Assembly (NCBI GenBank): GCA_035079385.1
Contig: JAVHKY010000043.1
Span: 1,302,001-1,366,000 of the forward strand
DNA: 64,000 nucleotides
DNA from: Aspidiotus rigidus
Lineage: Eukaryota; Arthropoda; Insecta; Hemiptera; Diaspididae
Direction of reading: 5' to 3'
Shown here: one piece after another, positions 10,533-62,895 of the stretch
Layout: each line of letters begins with the position of its first letter
How positions within the stretch are numbered: position 1 is the stretch's first letter
Notes under the pieces: generated by a model
What the model was told of the DNA's origin: nothing
The model's input: only the letters and a program-made list of their open reading frames with translations
Database searches by the model: none
Made by a program: the position numbers and the translations under genes

Positions 10533-10741
10533 ATAACTGTACGCCAGCCAAACACCTGCTGGAAAAGGCGAGCGAGCGCTAACTAATGATAATTAACACC
10601 AAATTTATGCTCCCAACGCGAATATGTTTTGAGGCTGGTGGTTGAAGATACTTTTTGTGTAGGAAAAAAATGATCTTCGAACGAGGGGAGCATTTAATTG
10701 ACTGTGATAGTGACCTCACAATATTTTTTTCCATCACTTAA

Positions 10742-23359: not shown

Positions 23360-23861
23360 TATAGATACCTAAAAGAGACAAGATAGCCCACGATAGCCAA
23401 CTCTCCATATGCGCTGTGTTAAAATCCGGTACCCGATTTTTGTCGAGCTAATTTACGTGCCGAGAGATAGCGCCACTGTATTGTAGGGCTAAGTTAACAT
23501 TGCGCTTATGGACGTTTTTCAGTATTCATCAATTATCTCGGAAACCGTTCATTTTTACGAAGAAATGAAAAGAACAAAATTCATTCCCCTTGTAATTTCC
23601 TATCGTATGAGACCTATTTCATATTTTGAAAAAAAAAAATTCAAAGTAGGTCTCATTTGATAGGAAATTACAAGGGGAATAAATTTTGTTCTCTTCATTT
23701 TTTCATAAAAATGAACGGTTTCCGAGATAATTGATGAAAACTGAAAAACATCCATAAGCGCAATGTTAATTTAGCCCAAGAATACTGTGTCGCTGTGTTG
23801 GCGTGCGGTGGAACACTTGAACTAACGAAGTTAGCTACCTTGTCTCTTTTAGGTATCTATA
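23360..23861. mobile_element. Palindromic MITE E1 with 8-bp TSD (hAT-like)
   Basis: The termini TATAGATACCTAAAAGAGAC are exact inverses of each other. GTTAGAAG is repeated at 23352-23359 and 23862-23869. The whole 502 bp folds back on itself around about 23625, with arms containing GAAATGAAAAGAACAAAAT, GGAAATTACAAGGGGAAT and CATTGCGCTTATGGACG. No coding capacity. Its right end abuts the next element (E2), and the duplicated target overlaps E2's first bases. Confidence 0.9.
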
Positions 23862-23864
23862 GTT

Positions 23865-24128
23865 AGAAGCCATGAACGTAAAATTGGCAACTGCACAACC
23901 GTGGGCCGACCACGGGCCGACTTTTACATTGCTCTTATGGGGAGAAACTCTTTGAGCGTCTGTTTCTTAAGAAAATATTAAGTTTTTGAAAAAATCGAAA
24001 AGAACAAAAGTTGTAGCTTGTGAAATTTCCTTTAAATAAGGGTCAACTCGATTTTTTCATGAGAGAGGTGTTTTACATGTAAATGCGTGGGCCGAATGCG
24101 GTGTTGCCTTTCTACGTTCATGGCTTCT
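23865..24128. mobile_element. Palindromic MITE E2, abutting E1
   Basis: AGAAGCCATGAACGTA at the left is the inverse of TACGTTCATGGCTTCT at the right, followed inward by GGCAAC and GTGGGCCGA on both arms. The interior has ACATTGCTCTTATGGGG and ATCGAAAAGAACAAAAG, the same kind of blocks as in E1, although the termini differ. No coding capacity. Confidence 0.82.
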
Positions 24129-25689
24129 GATCGATGGTGCTTAGGGAAAGTAAACAAACTTTTTTTACACGGACTTTTCTATAAGAAAAAAAATTGAATT
24201 CGATCATTTGCTCATATTTGAATAGAAGAATAAAGTGAGAAACAAAAAATACATTCTCAAATACTTGAGATCTTCCAGATCTTGATTATCAACGTTGAAT
24301 TCCTTATTTATTTCTCATTTTGAAATACTAACACATGATCGAAATGTTCCCTGTGTATTCTTATGGGAGTCGATAATGTTCGCACCATCGCATGATACTA
24401 TCCAGGGCTGAGAACACTTATTTTCTTTTTGAACGGTTCCGGTTATGAAGGTTCTTGAATTGAATTGTGGGATCCGGTTCCTTTCGGTTCCGGTTCCAGC
24501 ATCCTAGAAATACGGGAGGAGAACCGCTTCCTTCCTGAACCGGTATTCGGTTCCGGTTCTCACCCCTGATACTATCGAAAAATTCTGCGATACTATCGCA
24601 GAATATCACGCACTATCGATCAAAATTGCTCGATGTTAGCAGTTAGTGACGTCACGTGAACGAAGAGGATAACAGGGATGACAAGCCGTTCGTCATTGGC
24701 TTAAACTTTGTCTTAAGCTTGTAAGCCGTTGGGCTGATTTTGATTGGATTTTGGAACGGCTTTTTGTCATTCCATATTCATTAACTGCTTAAAGCTTTTC
24801 ATGATTGGCTATTGGCTTAATTTCCAAGTTTTATCTCAATTCAGTGTAGAATCAACCGTAGAGTTCAAAAATGCCACTCTTTTTCATCGGAGATCGAATT
24901 ACACAACAACCCTACCTTCAATTTTCCATCACGTTAAATTCAACTACCACACATGAGTGAACCTCAAAGAAATTGAAATGAAGCGAAGAATACTGTTACT
25001 CTCTTGCAATAAGGTGCCACAGCTGTTTTCGAGATCCCCTGCTGTAAAGGTTTTCAGCAACTTATCCAATAGACTGAGTTTTTCGTGATAACAAAATATC
25101 GATTACAGTGTGATTACAGTAGCAAAAGTACCCAAAATATTTCCAATCGCAAATTTGCTCCGCATAAGAAAACATAGGAAGCAAACCGATCATATGGTAT
25201 TAATTAAAATTGAGAAAGAATTGAGGGGTTAAAAGTTCAATTTTGGAAGCTGATTACCTCACACATTATAAAAATAAACTTTTTTGCCCTCAATCCTTTT
25301 TAATTTTTGTTTAATTTCATACTGATCTTTGCTTCCCATGTATTTCTTATGGGAGTAAAATTGCGCTTGGAAATATGACAATTAACAATTTAACATGTAA
25401 GAAGAAAATCAAATCAAATCTATGAATTCATCAGATCATTCATCAATCATCACTGGGACGGGAATTCTATCCCAACAGATATTTTTTGATTTTTGCTCGG
25501 CCTAGTATTTAGAAGTAGATTGTTATTATAATTCATTCAATTTTTCAAAAAACAACAAAATGCTCCTGTTGCTGTTAGGTATTGTGTTTGCGGGACAAAT
25601 GTCACCTACTCAGGTGCTCACAAATACAATGATAGTGAAGTGTAGTACTTCGCCAAAGGCTCCAATTTTTTGACTGGGCGGCCTCGGCT
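24129..25689. other. Intergenic, phrase-repeat patches, no gene
   Basis: About 24421-24565 is built from GGTTCCGGTT-type words in one orientation and GGTTCTCCTCC/GAACCGG in the other. About 24680-24860 repeats ATTGGCTTA and AAGCCGTT words, which appear again at 26930-26995. No exon of a known family was found. The 63- and 70-codon frames here are readings of these repeats. Confidence 0.5.
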
Positions 25690-25699
25690 GGCCTCAACT

Positions 25700-25966
25700 T
25701 AGACCATACAATAGATAGACCAAGCATCAGCCATATAAGCGTGTACAACGCGTTGAACGGAAGACATGATGAGAAAATAAGGGGGACTGGACCTCAATGA
25801 AGGCAACGCGGGTGAACGCGCGGAGCAGTGAAAAGCACTGTACACCCGCGCCGCTCATCAAACTTGAAAACAAGGTCCAGTCCCCCTTATTTTCTTATGT
25901 GTATTCTTATCACATTCTCCGTTCAAAGATTCATTACTATGCTCGGTCTATATGTTGTATGGTCTA
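25700..25966. mobile_element. MITE with TAGACCATACAA termini
   Basis: Left TAGACCATACAA and right TTGTATGGTCTA are inverse termini. GGCCTCAACT (25690-25699) and GGCCCCAACT (25968-25977) flank it as a near-identical 10-base duplication. Inner arms AAAATAAGGGGGACTGGACC and their complement (about 25776 and 25870-25895) form a second, longer stem around a GC-rich loop. It has no coding capacity. Confidence 0.8.
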
Positions 25967-26174
25967 AGGCCCCAACTATCACAAATAAATGAAACATCAA
26001 CCACAAGTCTTGCAGAACTTTGTTGTAGACATTGCAGAAATGGTCAACTTATCATTTTATCAACAATATATTTTCATATTTTTCGTGTTTTTCTTTATTA
26101 ATTAGCTGCTTGTGCTGCTTCCACAGATTTGTAGGCTTTTTACATTTTGAACTACTGGCTTACAACTGGCTTAA

Positions 26175-26646
26175 GGGCAGGCTCTACCTCGTTACTAACA
26201 CATGCAAAATACACTGTAAATACTTGAAACTATGCAACCTGCAGTACACCATGGGAAAATATCCTGGAATACTAATTTACAACTTGAAATTAGCTCCAAA
26301 TCTCTCGAAACTTTGTAATAAGATGATACATGACACTATCAAGACCGGAAATTAGTTAATAATCGCTAGTTTCAATTATTATTAGATCAACAATCGAATG
26401 AAAAAAAGGATTATTCGCACGTTATCAGTTGAAAGGAGCGATACTTCTCACGAAAGAATAACGTTATTTGAAGAAGTATAGGTGTTATAAACCAATTTGC
26501 GGTGTTTTTAGAACCTTCAACTTTTGATGTACCAAGTTTCATATAATTTGGTGCGCATTTCAAGTCGTAATTAGTATTCTCCGTAACGTGTTTGTGTTCC
26601 CACGGTTCTGTGTGTTCTTGTGTTAGTAACGAGGTAGAGCACGCCC
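26175..26646. mobile_element. TTAA-flanked palindromic MITE, copy 2
   Basis: Left GGGCAGGCTCTACCTCGTTA and right TAACGAGGTAGAGCACGCCC are inverse and carry the same terminus as the element at 10742-11178. TTAA is present on both sides (26171-26174 and 26647-26650). The 107- and 83-codon open frames inside run through the arms and show no protein family. Similarity to copy 1 is confined mainly to the termini, so the two are related but old or internally replaced. Confidence 0.85.
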
Positions 26647-26992
26647 TTAATTCGGAGTGCAAGCGCGAAAGAGTCGCGCTCTACAATTTCAATGGTGTGG
26701 AAAAAAAGAACTTGATCATTTTCCGGAAGTCTTCAGATCAAGATGAAAAATAATGGTCTCATTTGAAAGACAATTTAAAGGCTAATCAAATTTATTCTTT
26801 TCAATTTTTTAATTAAAGCTTTCGTTCCCAAAATATTTTGAGATTATAGTTGACACATAGTTAAATGGGAAATTGTACATGGTCACGTCTATAAGAGAGT
26901 CGACAGTAGCGCGCAATCGCTACCAGCACTGCGAATAAGCCGTTCAAACCCAGCTGCTGCTTCTGCTAAGCCGTTCATTGGCTTGGTAAGCC

Positions 26993-27622
26993 GCTATATG
27001 ATGTAGGTATAATGGGCCGACATCTTGATTGCAGAAAACGTAAACACGAGAAAAACTTCCATAAGAGCCAATGTTGAATTCAAATAAATTTGTGATTTTC
27101 AATGAAGGATAACTCGAGATCGGCTCAATAGATATTTTTGATATTACCTTCGTTGAAAAGGAAATTTTATGGACAACAAATCATCTTCTCTTTGATTTTT
27201 CCCTAGAAGCATTTTTTTGGGAGTTATCGATTAATAATGGAAACATTGGAAACACGTTTTTTCGGCCGTTCTGCATAACAAGTGTGAGCCGTGTAACCAC
27301 GTAACAACTATACTTCTTGTTACGCAGAACAGCTGAAAAAACGTGTTTCAATTATTAATCGGTAACTCCGAAAAAAAATGCTTCTAGAGAAAAATCAAAG
27401 GGCAGATAATTTTTTGACCATAAAATTTATTTTCCAACGAGGGTAATATCAAAATAATCCATGGTGCCGATCTCGAGTTATCGTTCATTGAAAATCACGA
27501 ATTATATTGAAATTTACCAAATTTACATTGGCTCTTATGGGTCTTTACTTATGGGAGTTTTTCTCATGTTTACGTTTTCTGCAATCAAGATGGCGGTCCA
27601 TTATACCCACATCATATAGGCG
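26993..27622. mobile_element. Large palindromic MITE E3
   Basis: CTATATGATGTAGGTATAAT at the left matches the complement of the right end (ATTATACCCACATCATATAG). The arms continue through TTGATTGCAGAAAACGTAAA, and the 630-bp element is palindromic to its centre near 27305. Both arms hold a CATTGGCTCTTATGG-like block and AACTCGAGATCGGC. A clean target duplication was not found. Confidence 0.85.
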
Positions 27623-27641
27623 CTGATTGTTTCGTCTACTA

Positions 27642-27733
27642 TAGTACGTTCCAAATAAGAGTGCCCGCTTTCGACAACAGCGCATATGGGCGATTGCTTA
27701 TCAAAAGCGGGCACTCTTATTTGGAACGTACTA
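27642..27733. mobile_element. Short hairpin MITE with TA flanks
   Basis: TAGTACGTTCCAAATAAGAG at the left is the exact inverse of the right end, with arms of about 31 bp (through TGCCCGCTTT) and a loop of about 30 bases. TA is present on each side. Its perfect arms suggest recent insertion. Confidence 0.88.
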
Positions 27734-28206
27734 TAACATACTACTACTTGATTTCGGTCAGCTATGCAGCTTTCCAGCAGAACTTATCAACCGATTTTCT
27801 AAAGGATAATACTTTTTAGCATACAAAGATTTTCCAATTTGCAACCAAAATTTTCTAATTTTCTTATTAAGCTGATCGTGTGACTGCAACTACATCTGAA
27901 TCTGACTATAAACTGATCTTATCACGAAGTGTTTACTTGAAGCAGTAGTACAATAATTGGACTATTGGAGTAGCCCACCGAAAAAAATATTTACATTAAT
28001 TTTGCAATCCAAGTCTCATTTTTCGTCACGACGTCGCTTTAAAAGATATCTATCATTTGCATCAAACCACTAAAATTTGGTTGAAAACAAATAATTGATC
28101 ACTTCTTCTGCTTAGAAATCAGGAAATGATTTCTCGAAATTGAAAACGCTACAAATCTCATTCAGTTATCATTGTTTCTTTTTCTTCTCTTCTTGAGACT
28201 ACGGTG

Positions 28207-30627
28207 ATGAGTTCTACGGAACTAAAATCTGGTAATGTCATAATATTCTATTATACTTTATCCTCAATTCTGACAAATATTTTTCAATATTTTCATTTCA
28301 TGACAGATTTTGTGATCGAAAGTTCGCATAAACCACTGCTCATTATTGTAGCTGCATTCTCGTTGGCTCTGTCAGTATTTTTATGTATTTATTTTAAGTT
28401 TCCTCAGCTGAAAGAGTAAGTTCGTATTTCATTTTTACCATTATTTTGTATGTGAATTCTTATGATCCTTTATTTCATGTGTTTTTTTGATAGGAATGAA
28501 CGTATTCACATTAAACTTCCCTTAAACATTGAAGAGGCCAAAAACCTTGGTAGAGTTCTCGATGTATACAAAGAAGAATTTTATGTTGAAGTTATGTCAA
28601 CGTTTGTGTTTGCGTATATATTGTATCCTTTTTATTTCTTTTTCTGTATGAGTTATACGAATTATCGACGAGCTATCCAGTTGTCGTAATTTGCCTCCGA
28701 ATAGCATAATTTATGCGCTTATATTCTAACCTTACCTGAACCTATTCAGCTTACAAACTTTCGCAATTCCTGGTTCGATATCGCTATCCATATTGGCAGG
28801 ATTTTTGTATTCGTTTCCTACAGCATTGATGTTGATATGCTTCTGTTCTGCCACGGGCGCTTCTCTTTGTTACCTTTTATCTTATAATTTTGGAAGGCGT
28901 TTAGTCGCCAAATATTTTTCTAGTCAACTTTCGTCGTATGCGAATAAGGTACTGGATTTTTAAGTATATATATTACTATAATTCTCGAGCTCTGAAAAAT
29001 AATCATTTCTCTCATAAAAATTTGAACTCTGTTCTAGGTAAAGGAACACCAAGATAATATTTTGTATTATATGATATTCTTGAGAATCACACCGTTTTTT
29101 CCTAATTGGTTGATCAATATTGCTGCTCCTTTGGTCGAAGTACCTTTCATGGCGTTTTGGCTTGGTACCTTCCTTGGTAAGTTGAAAAATCCTAAAATTT
29201 TTGATTTTCTGGAGCATGAATTTCTGGGTTCGGTGTAAATTATACGCCGATAAATTGTGCGGAGGAAATTATACTCAAGTACATGCTTCGCAAGCAAAAA
29301 TTATACACAGACAAGAATTGACTCGAATGAAATTCTTCGTGGACAAAATGGTACGTCAAGACACTGTACGTATTGGTATGTTCACAATTATGGACAAGTG
29401 AAAGAAGTTGAACGAGATTACGAATGTGCATGCTTTACAGGGATAATGTTGGAGTTCTAAAGGTTTCATCTCCTCTATAAAGCTTGACGAAGTTAAGTTC
29501 GTTCCCCTTCTGGTAAGGATACCTTGAGGAGTAAATTTTAGCTGCGAATACCACAGATCCCTCATGTTACATGAGGAGTTAGAGAAATTCTTTGATCTGC
29601 TCGATATCTGCTCGTCGCTGAACTTTTGAAAATTTAATAATAACATTTGATGCACTGTTCGACTCTGAGGTCTTCCCGCAACCACTGAAACCGTACTCCA
29701 TTATTTTGAAGAAGATATATGGATTGGCCGCCCATACTGGAGAAGGGGACTAGGCCAATTCGGACTCTACCAGCCGTATTCCCAAACAAACAATATAATT
29801 TTAAGTGCACTTAAGAGTCCCAGAAAGTCCCAAAAAAAACACTTAAGTAACCTCGCGAGGTTACTTGAGTGTTTTTTCGGTTCTTTAAGCAAACTTAAAA
29901 TTATTTTGTTTGTTTGGGAATACGGCTGTACATCACTCAACATTTCTTTATCAGGTGGTGGATTTTGTCCTAACTCTGATAAGAAATTGGAACGTGCGGT
30001 ACGTTGCGGAGAACAGGCAGTACACAACGACGCTAGCGCGCCATCGTCGTGTAGAGTCCGACGTGAAGTTGTTACAAAGCTGCGGCTGGTAACATACTAC
30101 AAACGAACAAAGCGGCGGAAAGTTGACGTACCGGATTTGAATTCACTGTCGATACTATTCATCTCATGGAAGAAAATTCACTTTTTTTTGAATTTACTAT
30201 ACAAAAAATTTTACTCTACCTTTTTTTTATGTATAATTGTACACCATATTGCGTACATTCTTATATACCGTACTTGTGCGTACAAATTTGTCTGCGAAGA
30301 ATTTTATTTGCGTACAGTTCTTGTTTGCGTATAATTTTTATTTGCAAAGAATTCACTCACGTACAATTCCTTTGTACTATTTACCTGTGTACAAATTACC
30401 CGCGTACAATTTTTCGGATACCGAATTTCTGTTATTGACTCATATTCTTCGCAGGAGTCGCGCCACCATCATTCGTCGCCATTCAAGCAGGCAAAACATT
30501 GCATCAGTTGACCTCTGTAGGTGGTACATGGTCTTGGAATTCCATAATTTTATTAGTCGTATTTGCTATCGGATCATTATTGCCTGTCCTTTTCAAAAGA
30601 GGAAGGAAAAAGAACAAAGATCAATGA
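28207..30627 (+). CDS. stas: TMEM41B/stasimon ER membrane protein, VTT (DedA) family (6 exons)
   Basis: Exons 28207-28231, 28307-28415, 28494-28622, 28750-28948, 29038-29176 and 30455-30627 encode 257 residues. An N-terminal membrane segment (LLIIVAAFSLALSVFL) precedes FPQLKENERIHIKLP and the VTT core: IFLQTFAIPGS, LSILAGFLYSFP, a CFCSATGASLCYLLSYNFGR helix, FLRITPFFPNWLINI and LGTFLGVAPPSFVAIQAG. A last membrane segment and a lysine-rich tail (KRGRKKNKDQ) could act as ER retention signal. TMEM41B is an ER phospholipid scramblase needed for autophagy and lipid mobilisation; stasimon is its Drosophila orthologue, linked to motor-circuit function. All conserved blocks of the family are present. 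The start at 28207 gives a short cytosolic N-terminus; the human protein is about 34 residues longer there. Confidence 0.95.
29771..29928. mobile_element. Palindromic MITE in stasimon intron 5
   Basis: CAGCCGTATTCCCAAACAAA at the left is the inverse of the right end. The 158-bp element is palindromic around CCTCGCGAGG at about 29857. TAC flanks both ends (29768-29770 and 29929-29931), a possible 3-bp duplication. No coding capacity. Confidence 0.86.
30225..30425 (+). repeat. Phrase-repeat block built on GCGTACAATT in stasimon intron 5
   Basis: About ten variants of TGCGTACAATT/TGTGTACAAATT occur in 200 bases just upstream of the last stasimon exon. Two overlapping open frames (142 and 140 codons) cross it, but they merely read the repeat and then run into the true exon at 30455. 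Confidence 0.6.
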
Positions 30628-30869
30628 TGTTGCTTCTCTATTTGTGCCATTTCTTCTAGACGTATCCATATTTTTTGAGGTTCACGAAGCATGGTTAAAT
30701 CGATGAATTTAAATTGTGATAATTATCTCAAGGTTACTTTTGATCGGTGTATTCAATATAAGTTGTACTCCTTCTACGATCCTGAGTAGAATAATTTAAT
30801 ATTGTGACAGATGGAATTTGTGAAATCGTCGTTTTTGAATCAGTTCATCACATCTAAGTAGAATTTATT

Positions 30870-30895
30870 TATTTATTTATTTATTCATTTTTTGG
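30870..30895 (+). repeat. (TTTA)n microsatellite 3' of stasimon
   Basis: Six or so TTTA units about 240 bases after the stasimon stop codon, probably within the 3' UTR. Confidence 0.8.
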
Positions 30896-31730: not shown

Positions 31731-31966
31731 TATTTGGACTGTACAACCGTGTTTTGAAGCTCAAAAAAAATAAAATGGTATCATTTTAAAGGAAATTTCA
31801 TGCTCGTTCGATTTTGTTCTCTTCATTTTTCTTGTAAAATCTCTATATTTTGAGTTATTTAGAAAACGTTGAAAAACTTCCATGTATGTTACCGTCCCCG
31901 TTCTCGTTTTCCCATAAGAATGCATTGGTGTATGCCCTTCAAAACGCGGTTGTACAGTTCAAATAC
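31731..31966. mobile_element. Palindromic MITE E5
   Basis: TATTTGGACTGTACAACCG at the left and CGGTTGTACAGTTCAAATA at the right are inverse with one mismatch, and the arms continue through GTTTTGAAG. The interior has AAAGGAAATTTCATG, GATTTTGTTCTCTTCATTTT and CCCATAAGAATGCATTG, the internal blocks shared with E1-E4 and E6. No target duplication was identified. Confidence 0.78.
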
Positions 31967-32057
31967 TATAAAAAAGAAACTCGTTTGATTGTAACTATAT
32001 CACACAGTGGCCGTCGTACCTACTGATGTGAAATTTACAGGACTGATGGACATTACT

Positions 32058-32763: not shown

Positions 32764-32989
32764 ACATTACTGCGTGGATAAATTGTGTGAAAAAAAATTG
32801 TTCCCTTCAACATTCATCCTATCACTGCTAAGAATTTTCCATTGTATAATATTGGGACACTCCATCCCTCACAGTTAGGACATCTTGAACCCATTACTAT
32901 GAATGGAACAGACAACAAGCACGAATCTAAAAACAGAATAATTAGGTACTTATGAAAAATGTTCATTTGGCCTATTTGTCATTCACTTG

Positions 32990-33215: not shown

Positions 33216-33846
33216 ACTGTAGTATCCATCAAATAAGAAGGCCACAATACTGAGCGTATTTTCTCTAAACGTTCCATTAATTTTTTGGGCTTCTAATTTG
33301 ACTTATAGAAAGTAAAGCAAACGACCCAATGATAGTCAAAATGAGCGTCAAATGTGCTTGTTTGACGAGTGCAATTAGAGATGTAAGAAGGACGTATCCA
33401 CATATGAATATATCAAAGGTTTCTGAACGCCAATAGAATTTATCTAGGTGAACTATAATTTTCAATGTTTATAGAAGGTAACTCAGGGCTACCTTTACTA
33501 TCAGGCGGAGTAACTGAAAAACCCGTCGTCGTTGAGATAGACGTTTCGGTAAGCGTGGGGTAAGATGTTACTGTACCGCACTGCGTCCCCTACCTGACTT
33601 TTAATTTTAAAATTATTAGAACCCGTTCTGTAGTGAACCGATTTCATCGAGACTAGGCTTAAACCATTGGAAATTGTTTGCTTTTCAAAAAACTTTCTCT
33701 TCATTCTTTTGTGAAACCCGTTGTATAACAATGAATCTTGATTATTCAACGTTTTTGGATTCCTGGTCACTTTCACGAAGCGAATCTCACGAGAAGCACA
33801 TTTCATGAAAGACATTTTCACGAAAATTGCTTCTGATGTTTTTTCC

Positions 33847-34147
33847 ATTCGGGCCCAACAGCGCTAGCTTCGCTGATAACGCAACCGGGTACATAATAGA
33901 CATTGCGGGTATCGAGGTGAGCGGGTAGTAACTGTTTTCATAAAATTTCAATGTATTTCAAAACTGATAATTTCATTTGAAAGGAAATTTTATGATCAGC
34001 AAATTTAGTTCTATCAATTTTTTCGAAAAATTGCTTCTTTCCAAAGATATTTCAAATTGAAATTACATTGAGACAAATGCAATTTTTTCCTTCACCCCGG
34101 TTCCATTTTCGCGACTACAGCGAACCTAGCGGTTGTCGGGCCCGAAT
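33847..34147. mobile_element. Palindromic MITE E6 (ATTCGGGCCC termini)
   Basis: ATTCGGGCCCAACAGCGCTA at the left matches the complement of the right end (CTAGCGGTTGTCGGGCCCGAAT) with two mismatches; the stem includes TTCGCTG. The interior has TTGAAAGGAAATTTTATGA and AGTTCTATCAATTTTTTCGA, versions of the shared blocks described for E1-E5. No coding capacity. Confidence 0.78.
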
Positions 34148-35206
34148 TGTGTTCTGAGGTGTATCTCGGATCACTACAACCATCTGATGCGACGTTGTCA
34201 CATTGAGTTACTCGGCCTGATAGTAGTGGTGCGGCCGTGGGTAACTCCTACAAACATTTGCATAGAAGTGGAGACTAACTCTCACCTCTGCCTGGCCCCT
34301 GCTTACATGTATCATTAAAATTTTATGAGTGATGGAAATAAATACGCGTTTATACTATCTTTGCTGGTCCGATAGAAAGAAAGCAAAGGACGACACTTCT
34401 GCCGTACAAAGTTAAATTGACATATATTCATTTCATGAGATTACCAAACGGTATCTTTCACGTAACAAATGTCTAAGTGTGCGTAGTCAGCTCGTAATCA
34501 GTTTGTATGTGTGCGTGGCGATCCCTTTGTCGGCGAATATTTTATAGTGCGTTAATTTAACAAAGTCTTGATGATTTCCTACTCCATTTTCAACAAAGAA
34601 TCCAAAAATCAAATCAGATTTTCCCAACTTGACCTGGTTTTTGAGATAATGGAGATACGTCAAGATTATAAATCTATCAAATTGACGTAACTCCACTATC
34701 TCAAAAACCAGATTGAATTAGGAAAATCCAACGTCATTTTCGAATTTCTCGTTGAAAATTCGTGCGAAATCTTCCAAACGAACTCGATTGAAGTCCATTT
34801 TTATCATCGAGGAAAGATTATTCAGTTTCCCAGATGGACGTTCTGAATATACGTCAATTTGAGTTTGTACGGCAGACTTATTCTTAGTATGCACGGATGT
34901 GAACAAAGTTCTCACAAGTCCCACCAACAACTATTCAATTCAAATGTTTCAGTGGCAACGTCGTAGGCCAATTTTAATCCGACTCACTGTATATTGGGGC
35001 GTGCAAGGTTTCAAGTTTTATGTCCGACTAACATACATGAATTTCAAATGTGTGTCCGATAAACATTCTAAATTGAACGAAGTCCGATCAAGATACCACC
35101 CTACTCTCTTGTGGCTAGTATTGAATGTATCACGAATCTAAATCCGCGGAAACATTCAGAAGTGAGGAACAAGAAAAACTTACTCTTATTTTTCCCTAAC
35201 TCTCAT

Positions 35207-36569: not shown

Positions 36570-37128
36570 GGCTGTTAGCAGTTTGCGTCCCACCCACTGT
36601 CCTAGTTGCGGCCGAAAGAAATTGAAGTAGTATCCAAGTTGCGGCCGGAAAAAAAAAAAATATTTTCTTTGAAAATAATTGCAGCACATACATTGTCATT
36701 AAAACTCTAGTCGAGAAATTAATAAAAGTAGCTGTAAAACAACAAAATTTAGCCCCCCTCTTACTGTACATTTTTGACATACTTCAAAAAAATTATGTAA
36801 TAAGAGCACGAACACCACGAATACTCATTCACGAGATCAACTGAGAAACTATGAGAAAATGAAAAGATGAAGCACAATATTGCTTCTTATTCACATTTGG
36901 TTTCGTTAAAACACGAAGGTGAATCATAGAAAGTTCGTCACTAGTGGCATGGCAGACAAAACTTCTGCACGGGTCAATCGCTAAACCTTTTCCATGGTCC
37001 TAAATTCCATTTTAGATGGGCCGCAAACTGGGCACTTGTTCAATTTTAGTTGGGCCGCAAACTGGGTATTTGTTTAATTTCAGTTGGGCCGCAAAAAGTA
37101 TCCTCGGGGCCGCAAACCAGATGCAGCC
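36570..37128. mobile_element. Non-autonomous hAT-like element, copy 2, with 8-bp TSD
   Basis: Near-identical to 3450-4029, the same way round. It is flanked by GATAACTA at 36562-36569 and 37129-37136. Compared with copy 1 it lacks a 21-base internal duplication near the left end and differs at only a few positions by eye, so both copies moved recently. It has no coding capacity. Confidence 0.92.
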
Positions 37129-46512: not shown

Positions 46513-46552
<40 letters not shown>

Positions 46553-49500: not shown

Positions 49501-52500
49501 TTGACTTGGTAATATTTTACCGCGGGCGGAATATGCGCAATTTGAAACTCGCTGATTTTTTCAGTCGACTGATATTTAAAACCAAATAATTGTACAATAA
49601 CCTTTGCCATATCAATAAAGTACAAATACAAAGCACACTACCTGTAATACTCGAATGAAACGTCACCCGGAGATAAGAACAAGTTTATCCAAGGTACATA
49701 TTGTCAAGTGATGAATGAGTGATTAATACAGTCTACAAATCTGACTTACTGCACCCAGTTTTTTCCTGTCCAATCAAATTAATACCTTGAGTCAGGATGC
49801 TTTCCAGAAGGAACTAGGGACAATCAAGCACCTGGCTAGAGTGAATCAAGTGATAGGCCTAGTGGATATTGACTTAATGGTTTGTAGGAGGCTTACTAGA
49901 AAAAGCCTGGATTCTACCACCTCCCTCCCTAGGGATTCACACCTAGATAGGAGGAAACGTTGGATTAGACTTCCTTACTTGGGTAGATTTTTTTTGAAGT
50001 TGTGCCGTGTGCTCAGTCCTTTCGGGTTTCGACCGGTATTTTATAATACTAATACGGTAAAAAGTTGATTTGTGAAATTAAAAGACCCCATTCCTCTAAG
50101 CGAGAGGAGTGGCGTATACAGCAAAGCCTGCAACGGTTGCCCTGGAGTTTATGTAGGAATGCCCGGTCGTCAGCTCCAAAAAAGAATTGATGAGCCTATG
50201 AGCCACCCTTAACCGAACACCTTATCGCAAGTGACGACAGGGTCAAAGATGGGTCTGGTACCCTCCTCCATTAGGAGAACTCATACTTTAAACTTATGGC
50301 TTTGGAATATCAAAATCATACATCACGGGAATAATGAAGACTTCACCGTCTTAAACAGGTATATTCCTGATGAGGGTCTGGTTGAGCTAGTCTATGAGAA
50401 TGATTCACACTTCAATAGTATATTACGCTATAAGGGACGGAGGAGAGCGATTTCTATACGAGCGCTTTGGCGACCCGAGCCGCAGCAAGGGCCGCCATGC
50501 AGCGCGAGTATATCTCTTTCTCCGTTCACGTGTGGCGGACGCTATTTTTCGGTTCACATGAATAAAAATGCAAACGCGAGATGATCTGTAATTAAAATTT
50601 TAACTTTTCTATTAGAGCATCATAACATCGTTCATAGAAACACACATACAATAACAAAATTGTAATTTTCTTACAATTGATGAACACAAGGAAAAATTTG
50701 AGTGTTGTATTTAAAATTATTAAAAGATCATTTTCGTCGGCGATTGCCAAAATGTTCGGCGCATACAGAATACGCGCATGCGCGCAACCTAACTCTTCAA
50801 GCTCTAAAGTATAGCTCTAAAGTAAAAAAACGCGTCTGAACTCTGAAGGAACGTGTTTTTATTCATGTAAACCAAAAATGGCTATTTACAGTACATGTGG
50901 CGTAGGTGAGTCTTTTCATAACGAGAACATACGTTTGCGGAACGAGCAAGGCGAGTGAAGCAATGTATGTACGAGTTATAAAGACTCACCTACAACACTT
51001 GTACTGTACAAGACTTTAAAACACAAATACTTTGAAGACAAATTTGTACATCGGAAGTATATGTTTTCGTGCGGCATGTTTACGTCATAGTTTTTTTGCA
51101 ACGGTTTTCCGTGTATAAAAGACCATCGGTGACGTTATTTCGTTTTTTTCACACGCTCCGCGCTAACGCTGAAAATCGTTACCTACGTCACTGAAAATCG
51201 TTTCGCAAAAACGTACTTACAATGCATGCGTGTTTTAAATTATTTTTAATGAATGAGCCTTACTTTACGGACAACGATGTGAATGATTACACTTCCCTGA
51301 GTTTCTGGTATATTTTTACCAATGAAAGTTAGGTACTTAGACACAAAGGTTGATCATGAAATCTCGATTGGGACTCGCATAACCTACTAAAGCACATTGT
51401 AAGTATATGGTTGGGAAATCCATAAATAATTTTTCTGATGAGACGTCGGTGGTGAACTCAATTGCTTAATGTACTGGAATGGTTTTGAGATAGAGCCGTA
51501 TATCTGATGAAATATACCATCATAGAGTGATGGAAAATTCAACAAACAGAGGAGAATTCATTATGCGGTTGTTATGCAGAAAAGTTTACGAGTTAGGACC
51601 AGTGTTAGCTGCTAACCAAAGGTCAACCTTATCCTAACCACTCGTTAGCAATGAACTTGCGTTAGTAATCAGGAACAAGGAATTAATTCGATCCTTTAAA
51701 TTACGGCTATTCATAATGACGAATACACACGAGAGTGAAAAGCAAAAACAGAAAAATTACTCACGAGAGTAAAGAAAGTTGCAAAAACTGCAGAAATAAA
51801 TTCGACAAACTCGAAGCAAGAGATAGTGTCCTCGTTATTACGGGACATATTCACAAGGATTAGATTGAAGGAAAAATGCAAAGCCTGTATGAAGAAACCT
51901 TTGCTTGATAATTAAGACCTCTCTTAACTATAACAGTCGTCATCAGAATGATAGAAAAGCTAACAAACTAAATACAATTCGTCCTTATCAAATAAACCAA
52001 ACATCTAATCCTTGGGAAACTCGAAGCGCTTCCAGTTAAAAAACCATCATCAGCGAGAACAAGAAAGTAACTGACCCAACGATGAAACTAAACAAAGACA
52101 CCAACTCGAGACAAAAAGGAAAGAACTAATCATCGAGCTGTGATTCATAAACAAGCTCGATCAGACCTTAGTCTGGTATATGCCTGTTCAGCACGATGAC
52201 ACCACCCGTATACAAATGGTTTCTTTGTGTTCCAGGGCAATGCGTTTTAAGTACGAATCCTCCTTGTGGAAAAGCACCTAAGAACCTTCCCGGAAGCTAT
52301 GCCCACTGGTGATTAAGTGGTCAGCGAATGCTGAATCTTCCTCGCTGCCCTTCTCTCAGGCCTTCTTATGTTCAACCACCCTGATCTGTAACTGCCGACC
52401 AGTCTCTCCGATATAAACACCCTTACAATCTTTACACTCTAACCTATACACCCCACTCTCCTCCTCCTCCTCCCCCTCCTCCTCCTCATCCTCAGGAAGT

Positions 52501-55500: not shown

Positions 55501-58500
55501 GCAAAATTTAAAAATCAATCCAAAATGACGAGAGTAAGGGGAATAAAAGAGAACGCTTGAGCTTGAATAAATTTGATCTTTCAAGTGATTAACCTCGGTT
55601 ACTTGCGGTAACATATTTTTCTAAAAGTCCGTACAACTAGAGAGAAATAACTCAAATATATTGGTTCTCTTGCCTCGATAAGCCAAGAGCCCCTGTACAA
55701 ACGCGAGAAGAAGAAAAAAACTTCTTACTGAAAGATATTTCTAACGTTACTGCGAAGATGGATTCTGTTACTAAAGATTTTATTTTTGCATAGAATTTTT
55801 CAAATTTTCTCAGTCTTCAGAAAAGTTTCTTCCTCTCAGAACCTCAATAAGGATAGTAAAATACCCACTGCATAAATTTTTCAACCGTGAAGACCAGTAG
55901 CGTATTTAGAAATTCTTTCTTGTGGGGTCCAAAAATTTTCTAGGAAAAAATTTCCTTTGAGCAAAACAAAATAAAAAGAAAACTTACTAGTTGGTTGAAA
56001 ATTGATGATTTTATACAAGTTTTGGTCCTCTGTGGGAGTGCCCTCCCCTGTAAATACGCCACTGGTGAAGATTACTGTTGTTACTTTTTGATCGTGTATC
56101 TCAATTTCTTCCGTTATGTACCATCGCTGTTATGATTGTTGGATTCTTGTTATTATAGTATTATTTTCGTATTTCTCATTGATACAGTATAGGGTGGGAA
56201 CCCTTGGATGATACTCACAATTCTAAAAGTAGAGTAAGAAGATTCGTTTGAATAGAAGCTAAGACCCTACTGTTCTGTCAATTACTTTTGGAACTCATTT
56301 CAAATACATAGATGCGTTTAACATCTTCATTCCGCAAATCGAAGATGGCCGATTGTTAGGATATTTATAAGTCGGAGCATAAAATTGGTATGAAGTTGTT
56401 TTCTTCTCTTCTTATTGGCCTAAACGCGAAGATTATTTTCGACGATGTATGACGAAGCATCAATAATAGGTAATTATATTCAGGAAGATAAGATCTACAC
56501 GCGCAAATTCGATGGTGATAGACTTCAAATCTATTTCACCGATTCCTTAAGGATTTCCCTTTCTTTCTGAAGGAAGATATAGCTATAAGAACTCAGCTGG
56601 TTTGGAGCGAGCTCCACCAGGAAGAAAATAAATTATTTGTAAGTTAGAAAGAGTACTTTTAATGAAGATGAATGAGAAATGTCGCCCGAAAGAAGTGGGA
56701 AATGTCCTCGTTAGGGAAGTCCAGAGAATAGAGAAAAAAAGGAAATTTAAACGCCATTCACAAAAAATGACCTATAATTACTAAATCAAATGAATTTTTA
56801 CCAATTGATTGTGACAAAATATATTCAAGTTGATAAGTATGTCACATTTCAAAGTAAGCGACAAGATCACGGGCTTTCAGATTCTTGACTTGTAAGATGC
56901 TATAGTGGCTTAGCACAAAAATTCCTCCGTCGTCTAATTTATAATCTATCCATCATTATTCTTTAGCTGGTAATTATAGTTCCTTATCGGTTCAATTCCA
57001 CCTGGAGCGAGAGTATGGACACTACATCATGGACTATTACGTTCCGAGTGTTCTTTTGGTCACTGTTTCTTGGGTCACGTTTTGGCTTGATCCGAATGCG
57101 GTCCCTGGTCGAACGACTCTTGGTACGTCAGATCACTTCTTTTTTCGTTTTTATAGCTCTACGCCTCTCACCTCATGCTCAAGTTGTTTTGAATCATTCC
57201 GAAAGTTTTACAATCGATGTTTCTCACATATTCTTAAAATATTTTGGAGGAAGGGCAGACAGACGCAAGCTCCCTTGATGTAATTTTAAACCGAAAACCC
57301 AATAAAGAACGAATAGGAACCTCTAGCCTGAGCGAGAATCGAACCTGCGGTCTCTCGTTTCCATGACGAATGCAATAATAACTACGCAACCATATTAGAT
57401 TGTGATACTTCGATATTAGAAAGAAGTGCCACGTCGTGATCGACAGGGTACAAGGACAACAGTACATTAGGGTGTAGCAAACGCACTTGAAAGCTTAGAA
57501 CGAAGAGGTACGAATTTTCGAAGTGAGTTCCCTTTTTTTCTTATCTTTAGGATACTGTGACGTTCTATCAGTCACCAAATATATCTTGACACCGATAATA
57601 AAGAACAATTACGAAAACCGAGCTTTATCACTGGTACCGCAAGTACAACACTTCTAAACACCGTTAAACTGTAACACAATCGCGTTAAAGAACGAGAACA
57701 CGTTAAGTATCGCTTTTAAGATTACAACTGAATCGCTCTATCGGGTTGCTGCCGGCTATTTATAGTCTCACCCATAATTCCGGAATTCTCGAGATTTCTT
57801 CTAGAACGGCAAACAGGTTATGCAAGAGTCCTTACAATCAATCGAGCATGTTCCAGATTGTTCACGCGCATTCGGCAAACTAGTTAAGCAATAAGCGCGC
57901 TTCCTTGCGGCGTCTGCTATTATTAAAAGTTTAGCGGCATGTGCAAGCTCGGTGCTTGCGGCTTCATTGCAGAACGCCACAATACCTACCTTGTCAATAT
58001 CCTTTAAACATCCACTCTATTCACCATTCCGAAAATCAAGTAGTCAGATTGTGCTGCAACTTATTGTCGCATATTCTGCCACAGTCATAATGCTTTATGT
58101 AGCCATCCTCCCCCTCCTCCCCCAGAAAATAGTCTTCTTCAACACCAAATAGATTTTGCGACTTGAAAATGATTAAATTCGTTTCTATTACGTTTATTTC
58201 TCCTTTTATTCAGAGAGAGGCTTCGATGGTTCTTCATTCGTACTTTTTGATTAATGAAATGTTGTGCCATGTGTCACTATTTTTTGTGATCTTTGTGTTA
58301 CGGGATGTACTTTTCTCGACCACCATATTGATTTAGACGTGGAATTATTAGAAGATAATCGTTTTTTTGAAGTATCACGACCTGGATAAAGTAATGAAGT
58401 GAAGGTGGACATCTCATAACGATCCTTTAGCGTTGTATGAACACTAAAATCGTATTTACGAAAGTAGGTAAACGATGCGAAAGTACGTAAACGATGCGCA

Positions 58501-61500
58501 AGTGATTCATAAGAAGAAAACTCAAAGCTTTATTTTCTAATTCGAAGAGATATATGAAAAAATACAAATTATTTCACGTTTAATGAACGTATAATCAGGA
58601 ACAATTTCGAGCGTTTTAAAGCCTCAAAACATATTTGCCGACTGAGGACACAATTTTCTTTTGAATGAGAAAGAGTTCAGCAAAAAGCATCGAAATTGCG
58701 GCACATGAATGTAGCATAACCTGTTAACCCGATTGTCAGCTCGAAAAACGATATTCTTGAAGGGAGCTTGCGTCTCTTTACCCCTTCTCTATGTCCAAAA
58801 AGGTAAAATTATAAGTCTTATGACGTCATTCGGTTTCACTTGAGTACTGTCCATCTAGTTACTCTCAGAGCTGACCTGCAGAAGGGTGGCGTAAGGCTAT
58901 ATAGTACACCTAGGTACCTCTAGTGTTATTTTTTCGATGTCGTAGAATAAATTATTACAAAGTAACAAGTCATTATTGTTCAAATAGGAACCAGTACTAT
59001 GTTGACTTTTATTACTTTATCGAGAAATATTGGTAGTTCCTTACCAAAAGTGTCGTACATAAAAGCTACTGAGATATGGTTCATCGGCTGTACCATCTTC
59101 ATATTTGGTTCGTTACTCGAATTTGCTTTTGTAAATACGATTTGGAGACGAAGGTAAATAGAAAATGTCTGTAGCCGTAATTAGTTATTTATGTTTAACC
59201 CTTATTCATGCGCATGTACTACGCTAGATTTTGATTTTCTTACTACGTCTCATTTTACTCTATAATTCATTTTCGAAGTAGAGCGCGAGTTCGTTAGTTC
59301 TTTAATCTTTAGAACTTCCTCTCTACGATCTTTTACTACCCCTATACCGTAAAAGAAATTGAGGAGTCTTTCATAAGTATTGTAAACTCCAATTTAGCTC
59401 ATTCGTTTTCTGCCACAATACAATAACGTAATAATCAATTTCCTATATTTCTTTCTCATGTACAAAACTGATGGAAATTCCTGTCATTTTTAGCGTGACA
59501 GGAAAGTTTGCCCAACGAAAATTTGCCTGTAGGGAAAATTTAAAGATGAGCGAAGTGTAACACTAACCTATTCAGCAGGCAAACAATCTTGTTTCTTCTG
59601 TTGCATGTAAGAACTCGTTTCATTGTATGAGCAATCATTCAATACGTACTTGTTAACTAGATATTAGTTGTGTATGTCTTCTCTTTTTTTATCGGTATTA
59701 AAGTTGAGCATCATCATTTAGAATTCTATTCAAATTGTTTATTGTGTATTTTTCTACTGATTGCTTTTGTTGTTGTGATTATGACGCTGAGTTTTGTTAC
59801 ATCCGAAAAGGATCATCAGAAATTAGTAGATGGCGGCTTCCTATACCATTTTGATCGTAAACATAATGGTATTACTCATATTGGCGTTGTGTTAAGCGGA
59901 AACTGTGTAATGGACGAGTGAGTACGAAGGATGGGAAAATTGTTTGTTCGACAGCACACACGCATACAAGCGACAAATCCGTATTTTAAGTTCTAATAAG
60001 CCTTGTGAACATGTCCACTTTGAAATTTCTGTTAGTTGCCCCCTCCTTGCTTTTCTGGACACTCCTCCCGGCATTAGTGCGCGTTTGCGACTGCCTCTTA
60101 AATAGCCTTTGTGCCTTATCACAAGTAGGAACTTTCCTTTCAAAGTTGAAATACGGTAGGGCAATATTTTTTCGCAGCGCCGGTGGCCGAGCGGTTGAGT
60201 CGCGGACTTCTGATTCAGAGGTGCGTAGTTTAAACCTCGTCACTGGCAGGGCAAAAGAATATCCGTATTTCAACTTTCCTACTTCTAAGAATCCTTATGA
60301 ACATGTCCACTTTGAAATTTCTCTTGTTTTATTATTTATCGTGATTGTCACAACTTCTAGACTGGTGGACAAATCATGAAAATGGCCAATTTTTGCATTC
60401 CAACATAATTTCTTGAGATATTTGGGCAACCATAGACGGTACTGAAGGCAATAATTATGTAATTCAAACAATAACTGATATGATTTTATACGGCGAGAGG
60501 GCAATAAAATGATTTACTTGGAATACCGATAGAGTGCGTTGTACCTTCTGCAGACAGTTCAATCGTTCGCTGTATAAAATCATATCAGTTATTATTGTTT
60601 GAATTACATAATTATTGCCTTCAGTACCGTCTATTTGCATTTTAGTATAATAGAAGATTTTAGTTTGAAATGAAACTTATCGTTCAATTTGCATGATTTT
60701 TCTACCACAGGTGCCTCTATTAGTTTTTAGTGAAAGTGTATTGTAGGTATTTAATCCTCCTCGTCCACAGTGACATTAAAAACAAACTGAGTTTTATTTT
60801 GATTTTCAAATATGATGATGCTTAAAAAACTTCTTTTCATATGAACTTCTTCATAAGAACAAAAAATGAATTTGATCATTCGTTTGTACTTACTTGAAAA
60901 CAAGAATATAAGTTCAAAACAAAATTAAAAGAACCAGTAAATTGTTCAACAATTCACGCATTTCTGACGATGTTGAATGAAAAATCAACTTTTTCAAACT
61001 ATCAACTGAGAAACAATTTTCTGGGATTGATAATTTCTTGTCAACTTTGTAATTTTAAATTTCACGTTTTTGGGTGTTTCAAATTGTTCAGATAAGTAGG
61101 ATCAGCATGGGCTATAGGACAATCAGTATTGTCCAGTTATTACGTTTCCGCAATATTATCCTGAAACCCATCTTCCTCATAATGACATCCTTCTAGTTCA
61201 CTAATAATAAAAAGCACGTTATAGAACTAGGTGCATAAGGTGCGCGAGATCAACTTGTGCGTCACCTAGTTGTATAATATACTATTTTGTACTATTTATG
61301 TTTCTACGCATATTCTATTAAAACACGCATGCATTGTAAGTACGTTTTTGCGAAACGATTTTCAGTGACGTACTAGGTAACGATTTTCAGCGTGAGCGCG
61401 GAGCGTGTGAAAAAAACGAAATAACGTCACCGATGGTCTTTTATACACGGAAAACCCATGGCCATCTCTAGTTACAGGCCGGAATATTAAAGCTGGCAAC

Positions 61501-62895
61501 GTCGCGGTGACGAAAAATACGGGGCCGAGTTTTATACACGCTCTTATGCAAAATTTTGGAAAAACATGTTAATCGTTGATTTGCGAATAGTATTCAATTC
61601 CGAAGGGAAAAAGTTTATAAATACATCGAAAGAGTAAACGATTCTCGATTTTTTGAGCTAGATCTCGTTAAAATTGATCAACTACGAAGCAACTTATTCA
61701 AGTTTTTAAAAAAAAAGTCAGACAGAGGGCGAAGTGCAGTACATGTACCGCGCTTCGCCCTCTGTCTGACTTTTTTTTTTTAAACGTAAATAACTCGCTT
61801 CGTAGTTGATCAATCCTAACAAGACCTAGCTCAAAAAATCGAGAATCGTTGGCTCTTCAAATCACATTCTCTTCACTTTTTTCGAAAACTTCACCGTATT
61901 CGTGTCAAATAGTATTTTTGATGTTCTCCCATAAGAGACTGTACAAATATCGGCCCCGTCCAATGTTGTCGAGTTCGAATATTCCGGCCTGTAATTAGAG
62001 ACGGCCATAGAAAACCATTGCAAAAAAACTATGACGTAAACACGCCGCACGAAAACATATACTTCCGATGTACAAATTTGTCTTGATGTACAAATTTGTC
62101 TTCGAAGTATTTGTGTTTTAAAGCCTTGTACAGTACAAGTGTTGTAGGTGAGTCTTCGTTATGAAAAGACTCACCTACGCCACATGTACTGTAAATAGCC
62201 ATTCATCAACGAAAAAAATATTCATTTTCTGCAGGAGGTGAATTTTTGTTGGGCAAATTTTCATTACTGGTTAATTTTCATGACTGGCAAATTTTCTCCG
62301 GTGTATTTTCGTTGGGCGAATTTTCTTAGGCAAATTTTCTCTCGCACTAGAAGTCCTCTCCCGATAGATAACGTCAAATTGAAAAATTATTTTCTTCAAA
62401 GAAATTCTTTAGAAGATATCCTTTTTCTTTGCGGTCATTTTCATCAACTTCGTTCTTTTTATATTTTCCTTTTTCATCTGTGTTCTCCAAGTCACTGTAT
62501 CTTATTTATTATTCTTAATCGTATCGTAATTAGTGTTAAGTAACTTCACCGCTGATATTAATATTATTGCCATCATTACTCTCTGCCCTCTCCCCCCCCC
62601 CCCAAAAAAAAAAAAAAATCATTTTTTAATACCTGTTACTGTACTGTTCGTATCTATTACCAAAATCATAGGAAAGAAATAGAATTGAAAAAAGTAACGA
62701 GTAAACACGTGCTGAGAGCAACACTAACTCCGCAATTAAATCGTAGATCCTTATCGACATTATCTTCGACTCAGTCACTGCCGCACATACAACAAATTCA
62801 TGAAAATAACAAACGAATGGTTTGTATTTATCTGCGAGATTACTTGTAATACGAATTAATAGAAAAATCGTTTGACGGATTATAAACTTTTTTTT

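What the first reader, a model, noticed from the sequence alone, without database searches (positions are those of the whole stretch)
23360..62008. Palindromic MITE families with different ends share the same internal blocks
Foldback elements at 23360-23861, 23865-24128, 26993-27622, 31731-31966, 33847-34147 and 61457-62008 have unrelated termini. Their interiors nevertheless repeat the same blocks. One is CATTG(C/G)CTCTTATGG(GAG) or its complement, at about 23503, 23750, 23922, 27056, 27524, 31910, 61546 and 61925. Another is AATGAA(G/A)AGAACAAAAT(T), at 23565, 23690, 23995 and 31815, with related forms at 34005. A third is GGAAATTT(C/T) next to AAATGAGAC or TTTGAAAGG. Ordinary MITE families share ends, not middles, so this is the reverse of expectation. 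The blocks may be a common functional core (transcript, hairpin stabiliser or small-RNA source) that has repeatedly captured new termini. I know of no named group with this layout.
Basis: partly seen in the sequence, partly recalled or inferred. Interest (0 to 1): 0.75.

Follow-up and report, generated by a model that had tools for sequence, protein, structure and literature searches.

The report
One core shared by many MITEs
In this animal genome, tiny jumping-DNA families with different ends, and different kinds of insertion footprint, carry the same roughly 110-130-base middle piece, so the middles may have been passed between families; a simpler case is known from corals.

Summary
Reversed-sequence controls gave nothing at E<=0.01. 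All seven are multicopy in the 441-Mb genome; for six (not D) the 40 best-scored matches span the core region. Ends fall into three footprint classes: 8-bp target duplication (A), 7-bp (B, C, F), none visible (E, O; D has similar tips). D1 and D3 differ in TIR body around one interior, D1 and D2 share ends but differ inside, and one old copy (L052) joins an F-type end to a B-like body. Best reading: an old core exchanged between MITE families probably served by different transposases, by nesting, gene conversion or template switching. Against it: the core tree is star-like, yet footprint classes cluster on it and one origin per class is not rejected. No function is shown. Coral CMITEs (PMC2872659) already show different TIRs around a shared interior, with one TSD class; sharing across TSD classes is the new part.

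The parts
23338..23359 (-). Family B, left TIR piece (CAAAGCCTCCTATAGTTAGAAG), cut off from the rest of B by insertion of A
   Evidence: 6 fetched B copies have this TIR continuing into CCATGAACG; sequence read directly
23352..23359 (.). Target-site duplication GTTAGAAG of A (second copy 23862-23869)
23360..23861 (.). Family A MITE, palindromic, TIR TATAGATACCTAAAAGAGACAAG, 8-bp TSD, one core per arm
   Evidence: 40 scored of 687 candidates, other full-length copies 96-97%; 8 of 8 loci with exact 8-bp TSD, two of which (L032, L035) look like one duplicated insertion
23494..23619 (-). Core, left arm of A
   Evidence: 96.2 bits; training row
23643..23769 (+). Core, right arm of A
   Evidence: 99.2 bits; training row
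23870..24128 (-). Rest of family B MITE (window copy lacks the outer part of the right TIR)
   Evidence: 40 scored of 487 candidates, others 95-96%; tip CAAAGCCTCC, exact 7-bp TSD in 5 of 6 copies
23923..24047 (-). Core in B
   Evidence: 74.1 bits; training row
26650..26936 (+).
   Evidence: 40 scored of 174 candidates, other near-full-length copies 91-95%; ends
26749..26877 (+). Core in O
   Evidence: 73.9 bits; training row
26987..27627 (.). Family C MITE, palindromic, tip TAAGGCGCTATATG (decayed in this copy), 7-bp TSD in better-preserved copies
   Evidence: 40 scored of 500 candidates, other long matches 80-86%; ends; TSD
27056..27073 (+). Block CTTCCATAAGAGCCAATG in C, lying before the core instead of after it as in A
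   Evidence: A/C match 31 bp 87%
27146..27246 (+). Core, left arm of C, pointing inward (in A it points outward)
   Evidence: E 2.1e-9, E 4.8e-7; C not in the training set
27343..27447 (-). Core, right arm of C
   Evidence: E 9.3e-6, E 0.0099; C not in the training set
31732..31964 (+). Family D (D1) MITE, tip ATTTGGACTGTACAA, short TIR, single core
   Evidence: 40 scored of 64 candidates; 26 of 40 matches confined to query 37-165, the core being 42-160; consensus
31772..31890 (+). Core in D
   Evidence: 72.7 bits; training row
33847..34147 (+). Family E MITE, tip ATTCGGGCCCAACAGCGCTAG, no TSD seen, single core
   Evidence: 40 scored of 183 candidates, others 98-99%; ends
33964..34086 (+). Core in E
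   Evidence: 72.1 bits; training row
61457..62009 (.). Family F MITE, palindromic middle, tip CATGGCC, 7-bp TSD GAAAACC (61450-61456 and 62010-62016); core tentative
   Evidence: 40 scored of 769 candidates, others 96-99%; exact TSD in 6 of 8 fetched copies; unoccupied paralogue in window with one GAAAACC
61856..61938 (+). Weak core match in the right half of F
   Evidence: E 1.6e-4, E 0.053, E 0.0068
50877..51238 (-). Paralogue of the repeat that hosts F, without F (unoccupied site)
   Evidence: (61318-61456 and 62010-62203 match it with a 7-bp overlap at 51103-51109)

Best explanation
The region holds several non-autonomous DNA-transposon (MITE) families that carry one homologous, non-coding core of about 110-130 bp. 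SHOWN: the core is homologous; it is found in A, B, C, D, E and O (F tentative); the scored copies of A, B, C, E, O and F span the core region; the ends fall into three classes by target-site duplication (8 bp; 7 bp; none visible with tip ATTYGG); D1 and D3 have different TIR bodies around the same interior. INFERRED: the three classes are moved by different transposases, and the core passed between families rather than every family descending whole from one MITE. The likely route is local exchange between co-resident elements: one MITE inserting into another (seen: A inside B's TIR, A inside another core element in L038), then ectopic gene conversion or template switching during gap repair, helped by the homology the core itself supplies. 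Inverted duplication of one half then gives palindromic members (A, C, F). The core is most simply a passenger, as no constraint was seen within copies of O.
For: Homology: (0 reversed hits). Family level. TSD classes: (A 8 of 8 exact at 8 bp; B 5 of 6, F 6 of 8, C 2 of 6 exact at 7 bp, and 6/6, 7/8, 4/6 with one mismatch allowed; E 0 of 7 and O 0 of 4 at lengths 2-10). Core with other ends: 26 of 40 D matches confined to the core; of those 26, 14 have a D3-type end, 9 a D1-type end, 3 neither; over the 37 fetched loci 14, 19 and 4, none mixed. Swapped parts: D1 and D2 share ends (33 bp 94%) and left half plus core (196 bp 87%) but differ between core and right TIR; L052 joins an F-type end (27 bp 93%, E 1e-6), B-like body and core (119 bp 74%, E 7e-12) and a D1-like piece (23 bp 91%, E 7e-5), E-values for an 11-sequence library. 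Nesting.
Against: The core tree does not demand exchange. TSD-class labels are clustered on it (3 changes, least possible 2; shuffled mean 6.4, 0 of 200 shuffles as low), as descent of ends together with core would give, although near-copies of one family (B, C, E, D) produce part of this; and an AU test does not reject one group for the no-TSD families (p 0.196) or the 7-bp families (p 0.177). D, E and O share the tip ATTYGG, so inside that class plain divergence of the TIR body would do. L052 is one old copy, its right end is not defined, and its own family search did not complete. No transposase search was made, so 'different transposases' rests on TSD length and tips. 7 and 8 bp could be one superfamily. 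F's core is weak.
Confidence: 0.58

Rival explanations
1. One ancestral MITE with this core gave rise to all families by ordinary descent, and the outer ends changed so fast (or were re-founded from flanking DNA) that they no longer look alike.
For: TSD-class labels cluster on the core tree (0 of 200 shuffles as low) and one origin per class is not rejected (AU p 0.196, 0.177). D, E and O share the tip ATTYGG. B, F and L052 share a subterminal word GCAAC (seen by eye).
Against: Transposase recognises ends, so ends should evolve slower than middles (general knowledge). Three TSD classes are hard to reach by drift. Orientation and order differ: the core points outward in A and inward in C, and the CCATAAGAG block lies before the core in C and after it in A.
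Confidence: 0.24
2. The core is selected: it helps these MITEs, for example as a transposition enhancer, a promoter or a source of regulatory RNA, and so is kept or re-acquired by families with different ends, like the highly conserved domains of SINEs.
For: Presence in at least six terminal families (F tentative) and three TSD classes. Lower core diversity in C (0.091 against 0.139; 2 of 609 circular shifts as low). The coral CMITE authors speculated the same (PMC2872659, text read).
Against: O shows no lower diversity in the core (0.0485 against 0.0447). The C contrast includes a hypervariable loop. No RNA fold in single cores (6 of 6). Cores of different families differ by roughly 20-30% over their best-matching stretches. 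Neutral decay after insertion would hide selection on source copies, so this is not excluded.
Confidence: 0.13
3. The core is a piece of an independent, older dispersed repeat into which several MITEs inserted, or which several MITEs picked up separately.
For: A related sub-clade of cores (L043, L044, L046; support 99/99) lies in longer repeats, including a 94% inverted pair 2565-3111 / 4625-5179 in L044. Of 16 hits outside the known window elements scanned for TIR plus 7- or 8-bp TSD, one (L038) gave a low-complexity match and the rest none.
Against: Within each MITE family the core sits at a fixed internal place, so capture would have preceded amplification. The tree is unrooted, so direction is open. 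Old copies lose their ends, so absence of TIRs is weak evidence.
Confidence: 0.04
4. The similarity is chance or AT-rich sequence bias.
For: The core is AT-rich and one of its words (AAAGGAAATTT) occurs at background rate in the sample (1 seen, 1.13 expected).
Against: Reversed sequence gives 0 hits against 42 and, in the 200-kb sample, 0 against 11 at E<=0.01. All 10 pairs among A, B, D, E, O exceed 200 of 200 shuffles.
Confidence: 0.01

Closest known systems
CMITE families of Acropora corals (Wang et al. 2010, PMC2872659; parts 1-3 of 4 read)
   Same: Several MITE families with different TIRs but a shared internal region that is more conserved between families than the TIRs; only a short terminal motif common to the TIRs; origin of the interior unknown
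   Different: CMITEs have TTAA duplications (piggyBac) and are about 100 bp. Here three TSD classes share the core, the core is far more diverged, elements are about 230-640 bp, some are palindromes, and core orientation differs
SINE highly conserved domains (CORE, V, Deu and others), and the V domain inside the MITE MER6 (PMC6887750; passages read)
   Same: A central domain shared by families with different ends; a domain carried into a DNA transposon
   Different: Those are retroelements; here only DNA elements are seen, and conservation between species could not be tested
Chimeric copies of Galileo in Drosophila mojavensis (PMC3573991; passages read)
   Same: 7-bp target duplications, long inverted repeats, and copies with both TIRs of one subfamily and the internal region of another, explained by ectopic recombination or gene conversion
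   Different: Exchange there is within one transposon family; here it would be between families with different TSD classes. No sequence relationship tested
Foldback4 of Drosophila (PMC2955051; passages read)
   Same: Palindromic non-autonomous elements built of recombined modules
   Different: Foldback4 copies share their ends and vary inside, the opposite of this case

Membership tests
MITE (generic non-autonomous DNA transposon) | Terminal inverted repeats | tested here: met
MITE (generic non-autonomous DNA transposon) | Many short, homogeneous copies without coding capacity | tested here: met
   64-769 first-look candidates per family, 40 scored in each; elements of 233-641 bp; no listed stop-to-stop ORF of 110 aa or more lies within A, B, C, D, E, O or F, but ORF 33501-33863 overlaps the first 17 bases of E
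MITE (generic non-autonomous DNA transposon) | Target-site duplication of fixed length per family | tested here: inconclusive
   Met for A, B, F and partly C; none visible for E and O. For D loci, 0 of 37 had a TIR with an exact 6-9 bp duplication, but these copies are old and some flanks were only 60 bases
MITE (generic non-autonomous DNA transposon) | Autonomous partner with matching ends | not tested
   no transposase search was made; genome search machine mostly unavailable
CMITE-like group (different TIRs, shared interior) | Interior conserved between families with different TIRs | tested here: met
CMITE-like group (different TIRs, shared interior) | TTAA duplication and CCYT tip (piggyBac) | tested here: not met
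   TSD 8 bp, 7 bp or none; tips TATAG, CAAAG, TAAGG, CATGG, ATTYGG
SINE with highly conserved domain | RNA-derived Pol III head and LINE-like tail | tested here: not met
   elements are bounded by TIRs; no tRNA gene in the window; in 23-35 kb all 22 Rfam matches are miRNA models below threshold
SINE with highly conserved domain | Central domain conserved across distant species | tested here: inconclusive
   0 matches in viral and prokaryote contigs, collections not meant to hold animal DNA
P/Galileo superfamily (for B, C, F) | 7-bp target duplication | tested here: met
   7 bp in Galileo from PMC3573991
P/Galileo superfamily (for B, C, F) | Homologous transposase and related TIR sequence | not tested
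   no transposase search made

The most novel reading that the evidence does not exclude
The core is a transferable internal domain of DNA transposons, the MITE counterpart of SINE conserved domains. It has been taken up repeatedly by non-autonomous elements that use at least three different transposases and still spreads in any family that holds it, because it aids replication, expression or recombination of its carrier.
Probability: 0.2. Interest if true: 0.75.

Novelty: new variant of a known kind. Interest (0 to 1): 0.5.

Why it matters
MITE families are classified mainly by their TIRs and duplications, on the assumption that the ends define descent. If one interior circulates among families with different transposase systems, MITE phylogenies and repeat libraries built on termini (or on whole-element clustering) mix histories, and the interior becomes a testable candidate for what makes some MITEs succeed. 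The set here, several young families in one genome with clear TSD classes, makes that test practical.

Tried and rejected
Chance or AT bias: rejected by reversed-sequence and shuffle controls, except that F's pairwise score is no better than one control pair. RNA function of the core: single cores fold no better than shuffles; 22 of 22 Rfam matches in 23-35 kb are below the curated thresholds and fit hairpins in general. Constraint inside copies: not seen in O, ambiguous in C. Relatives elsewhere: CATTGCTCTTATGGG hit 30 viral contigs, no more than I would expect by chance for a 15-mer in a collection of that size (my estimate), and these were not used; longer patterns gave 0. A tree of cores was built to count transfers; it is star-like and cannot. 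Searches for an enclosing TIR plus TSD found nothing in 37 D loci and one low-complexity match in 16 other hits. A query with the L052 mosaic did not complete. Literature: six searches in open-access papers; among the listed papers only the coral one fits closely.
Full report
SETTING. The window is part of a 441-Mb animal assembly in 102 contigs (G000, contig 43). An exon of a neurotransmitter-gated ion channel (PF02932) and fragments that look to me like a Penelope-type reverse transcriptase (by eye; no Pfam match) suggest an animal, probably an arthropod. The species was not identified.

IS IT THERE? The blocks sit at the stated places to within 8 bases. They are parts of one collinear stretch: TCATTTGAAAGGAAATTT, about 15 variable bases, TTTTGTTCTCTTCATTTTTTC, then GAGATAATT, then GAAAAACTTCCATAAGAGCAATG (alignment). 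Smith-Waterman scores against 200 dinucleotide shuffles put all 10 pairs among A, B, D, E and a seventh element O beyond every shuffle (z 7.3 to 18.1). C is marginal. F is weak: its best z is 3.5, and B reaches the same z against one of the nine control foldbacks (29771-29928). The only strong control pair is two foldbacks that share their own TIR. A sequence-only profile trained on A, B, D, E and O finds C in both arms (E 2.1e-9 and 9.3e-6) and F (E 1.6e-4); nhmmer is more cautious (C 4.8e-7 and 0.0099, F 0.053). On 292 kb of held sequence nhmmer gives 42 hits at E<=1, 23 of them training rows or copies of A and B and 19 others, and 0 on the reversed sequence (L031 repeats part of the window). 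A 200-kb sample of the genome (L039-L058: 40 kb upstream of the window, 160 kb at arbitrary places elsewhere) gives 13 hits at E<1e-3 with the first profile and 11 at E<=0.01 with an HMM built without rows from the sample, against 0 reversed. The latter is 55 per Mb (95% interval 27-98), or very roughly 12,000-43,000 in the genome if the sample is representative. Of single words in that sample, TCTTATGGG is enriched (7 seen, 1.03 expected) and AAAGGAAATTT is not (1 seen, 1.13 expected).

CORRECTIONS TO THE FINDING. Only A, C and F are long palindromes; B, D and E have TIRs and a single core. B begins at 23338: its TIR is CAAAGCCTCCTATAGTTAGAAGCC, and A is inserted inside it, duplicating GTTAGAAG. 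O (26650-26936) is a further family. In C the core points inward and the CCATAAGAG block precedes it, while in A the core points outward and the block follows it.

FAMILIES. Genome searches, which score only the best 40 candidates, gave (window copy included): A 40 of 687, B 40 of 487, C 40 of 500, D 40 of 64, E 40 of 183, O 40 of 174, F 40 of 769. For A, B, C, E, O and F the listed best matches run over most or all of the query, so they span the core region; I did not read each copy. D behaves differently: 26 of 40 matches lie wholly within query positions 37-165, the core being 42-160. I fetched 37 of the 39 other matches. D1-type ends were found in 19, D3-type ends in 14, neither in 4, and no mixture; among the 26 confined matches the numbers are 9, 14 and 3. 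Two pairs (L066/L090, L080/L082) are duplicate places 99.9-100% alike over their whole length, so the independent numbers are 18, 13 and 4. D3 has a 39-bp TIR, 97% matched in its consensus. It shares the tip ATTYGGACTG and about 150 bp of interior (74%) with D1, not the TIR body. D1 and D2 share ends and the left half plus core, but differ between the core and the right TIR.

TARGET-SITE DUPLICATIONS. With the tips fixed, exact duplications were 8 bp in 8 of 8 A loci (L032 and L035 look like one insertion held twice) and 7 bp in 5 of 6 B and 6 of 8 F copies. For C, 6 of 9 fetched copies had an intact tip on both sides and 2 of 6 were exact at 7 bp (4 of 6 with one mismatch). For E, 7 of 8 copies were usable (L103 and L104 again look like one insertion) and for O 4 of 8; none matched at any length from 2 to 10. 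In 37 D loci no TIR with an exact 6-9 bp duplication was found, but these copies are old. The tips ATTYGG...CCRAAT would allow an AT dinucleotide duplication by construction. The F insertion is confirmed by an unoccupied paralogue in the window with a single GAAAACC. So the core is carried by elements with three kinds of insertion footprint. That these mean different transposases is inference; no transposase search was made.

WHERE ELSE THE CORE IS. One old copy, L052 (2090-2480), joins an F-type end (27 bp 93%, E 1e-6) to a B-like body and core (119 bp 74%, E 7e-12) and a D1-like piece (23 bp 91%, E 7e-5); these E-values are for an 11-sequence library, and its right end is not defined. Two of eight A loci are inserted in core-bearing elements (L031, i.e. 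the window, and L038), and a third (L036) inside a CCCATAAGAG block with no core found in its 300-base flanks. A second sub-clade of cores (support 99/99) lies in longer repeats in L043, L044 and L046; L044 holds a 94% inverted pair with such cores. Of 16 hits scanned for TIR plus duplication, only L038 gave a match, of low complexity; for old copies this says little.

HOW IT PROBABLY WORKS. Shared middles with different ends arise if elements that sit in or beside each other exchange sequence. Nesting is seen here. Gene conversion or template switching during repair of a transposition gap would copy an interior between different ends, and the core supplies homology for further exchange. Palindromic members follow by inverted duplication. 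Galileo in Drosophila gives a within-family precedent: copies with both TIRs of one subfamily and the interior of another (PMC3573991, passages read).

AGAINST IT. The tree of 24 cores is star-like and cannot count transfers. TSD-class labels are clustered on it: 3 changes where 2 is the least possible, shuffled mean 6.4, 0 of 200 shuffles as low; the no-TSD label needs 2 changes against a shuffled mean of 4.7. Near-copies within families (E, B, C, D) make part of that, but it is what joint descent of ends and core would give. An AU test does not reject one group for the no-TSD families (p 0.196) or for the 7-bp families (p 0.177). On weighing this fully I lowered the exchange reading from 0.62 to 0.58 and raised plain descent from 0.20 to 0.24. 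Three TSD classes would still need at least two changes of ends if each class stands for one transposase.

FUNCTION. Nothing here shows one. Six single cores fold no better than shuffles (z -0.28 to 1.42). Core diversity among 10 O copies is not lower than the rest (0.0485 against 0.0447). In 10 C copies it is lower (0.091 against 0.139, 2 of 609 circular shifts), but a hypervariable loop is in the remainder. MITE copies decay neutrally after insertion, so this does not exclude a role in source elements.

WHAT IS KNOWN. Coral CMITEs (PMC2872659; parts 1-3 of 4 read) have the same layout: different TIRs with a conserved interior, within one TTAA class. SINE conserved domains, and the V domain in MER6, are the wider analogy (PMC6887750, passages read). 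Six literature searches in open-access papers listed no other paper that I recognised as a close case, judged from listings; subscription papers, Repbase and Dfam were not available. The case here is a new variant: sharing across TSD classes, with strong divergence, changes of orientation and palindromic members.

Noticed in passing
   Followed up: yes
25137-25376: Palindrome carrying TTCTTATGGGAG (25344) with no core hit; a similar stretch at 24291-24369 also carries the word
   Followed up: no
10738-11182 and 26171-26650: Two foldbacks that share a TIR of about 47 bp but have no core hit
   Followed up: no
33464-33518 and 34203-34258: An outer inverted repeat (77%) encloses element E, so E may be nested in an older element; weak core match at 33658-33741 (E 0.013; E 0.65)
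   Followed up: partly
3480-4029 and 36579-37128: 550-bp direct repeat, 99.6% identical
   Followed up: no
50877-51238 and 61318-62203: Inverted copies of one repeat, one with and one without the F insertion (unoccupied site)
   Followed up: yes
L044:2565-3111 and 4625-5179: 94% inverted repeat arms that carry a second sub-clade of the core; candidate for a larger carrier element
   Followed up: partly
L036:1501-1994: A copy of A inserted inside a CCCATAAGAG block, with duplication CATAAGAG
   Followed up: partly
L032/L035, L103/L104, L066/L090, L080/L082: Four pairs of places on different contigs (C61/C9, C40/C9, C61/C9, C24/C1) with the same sequence or flanks; possibly duplicated or haplotype contigs in the assembly
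   Followed up: no
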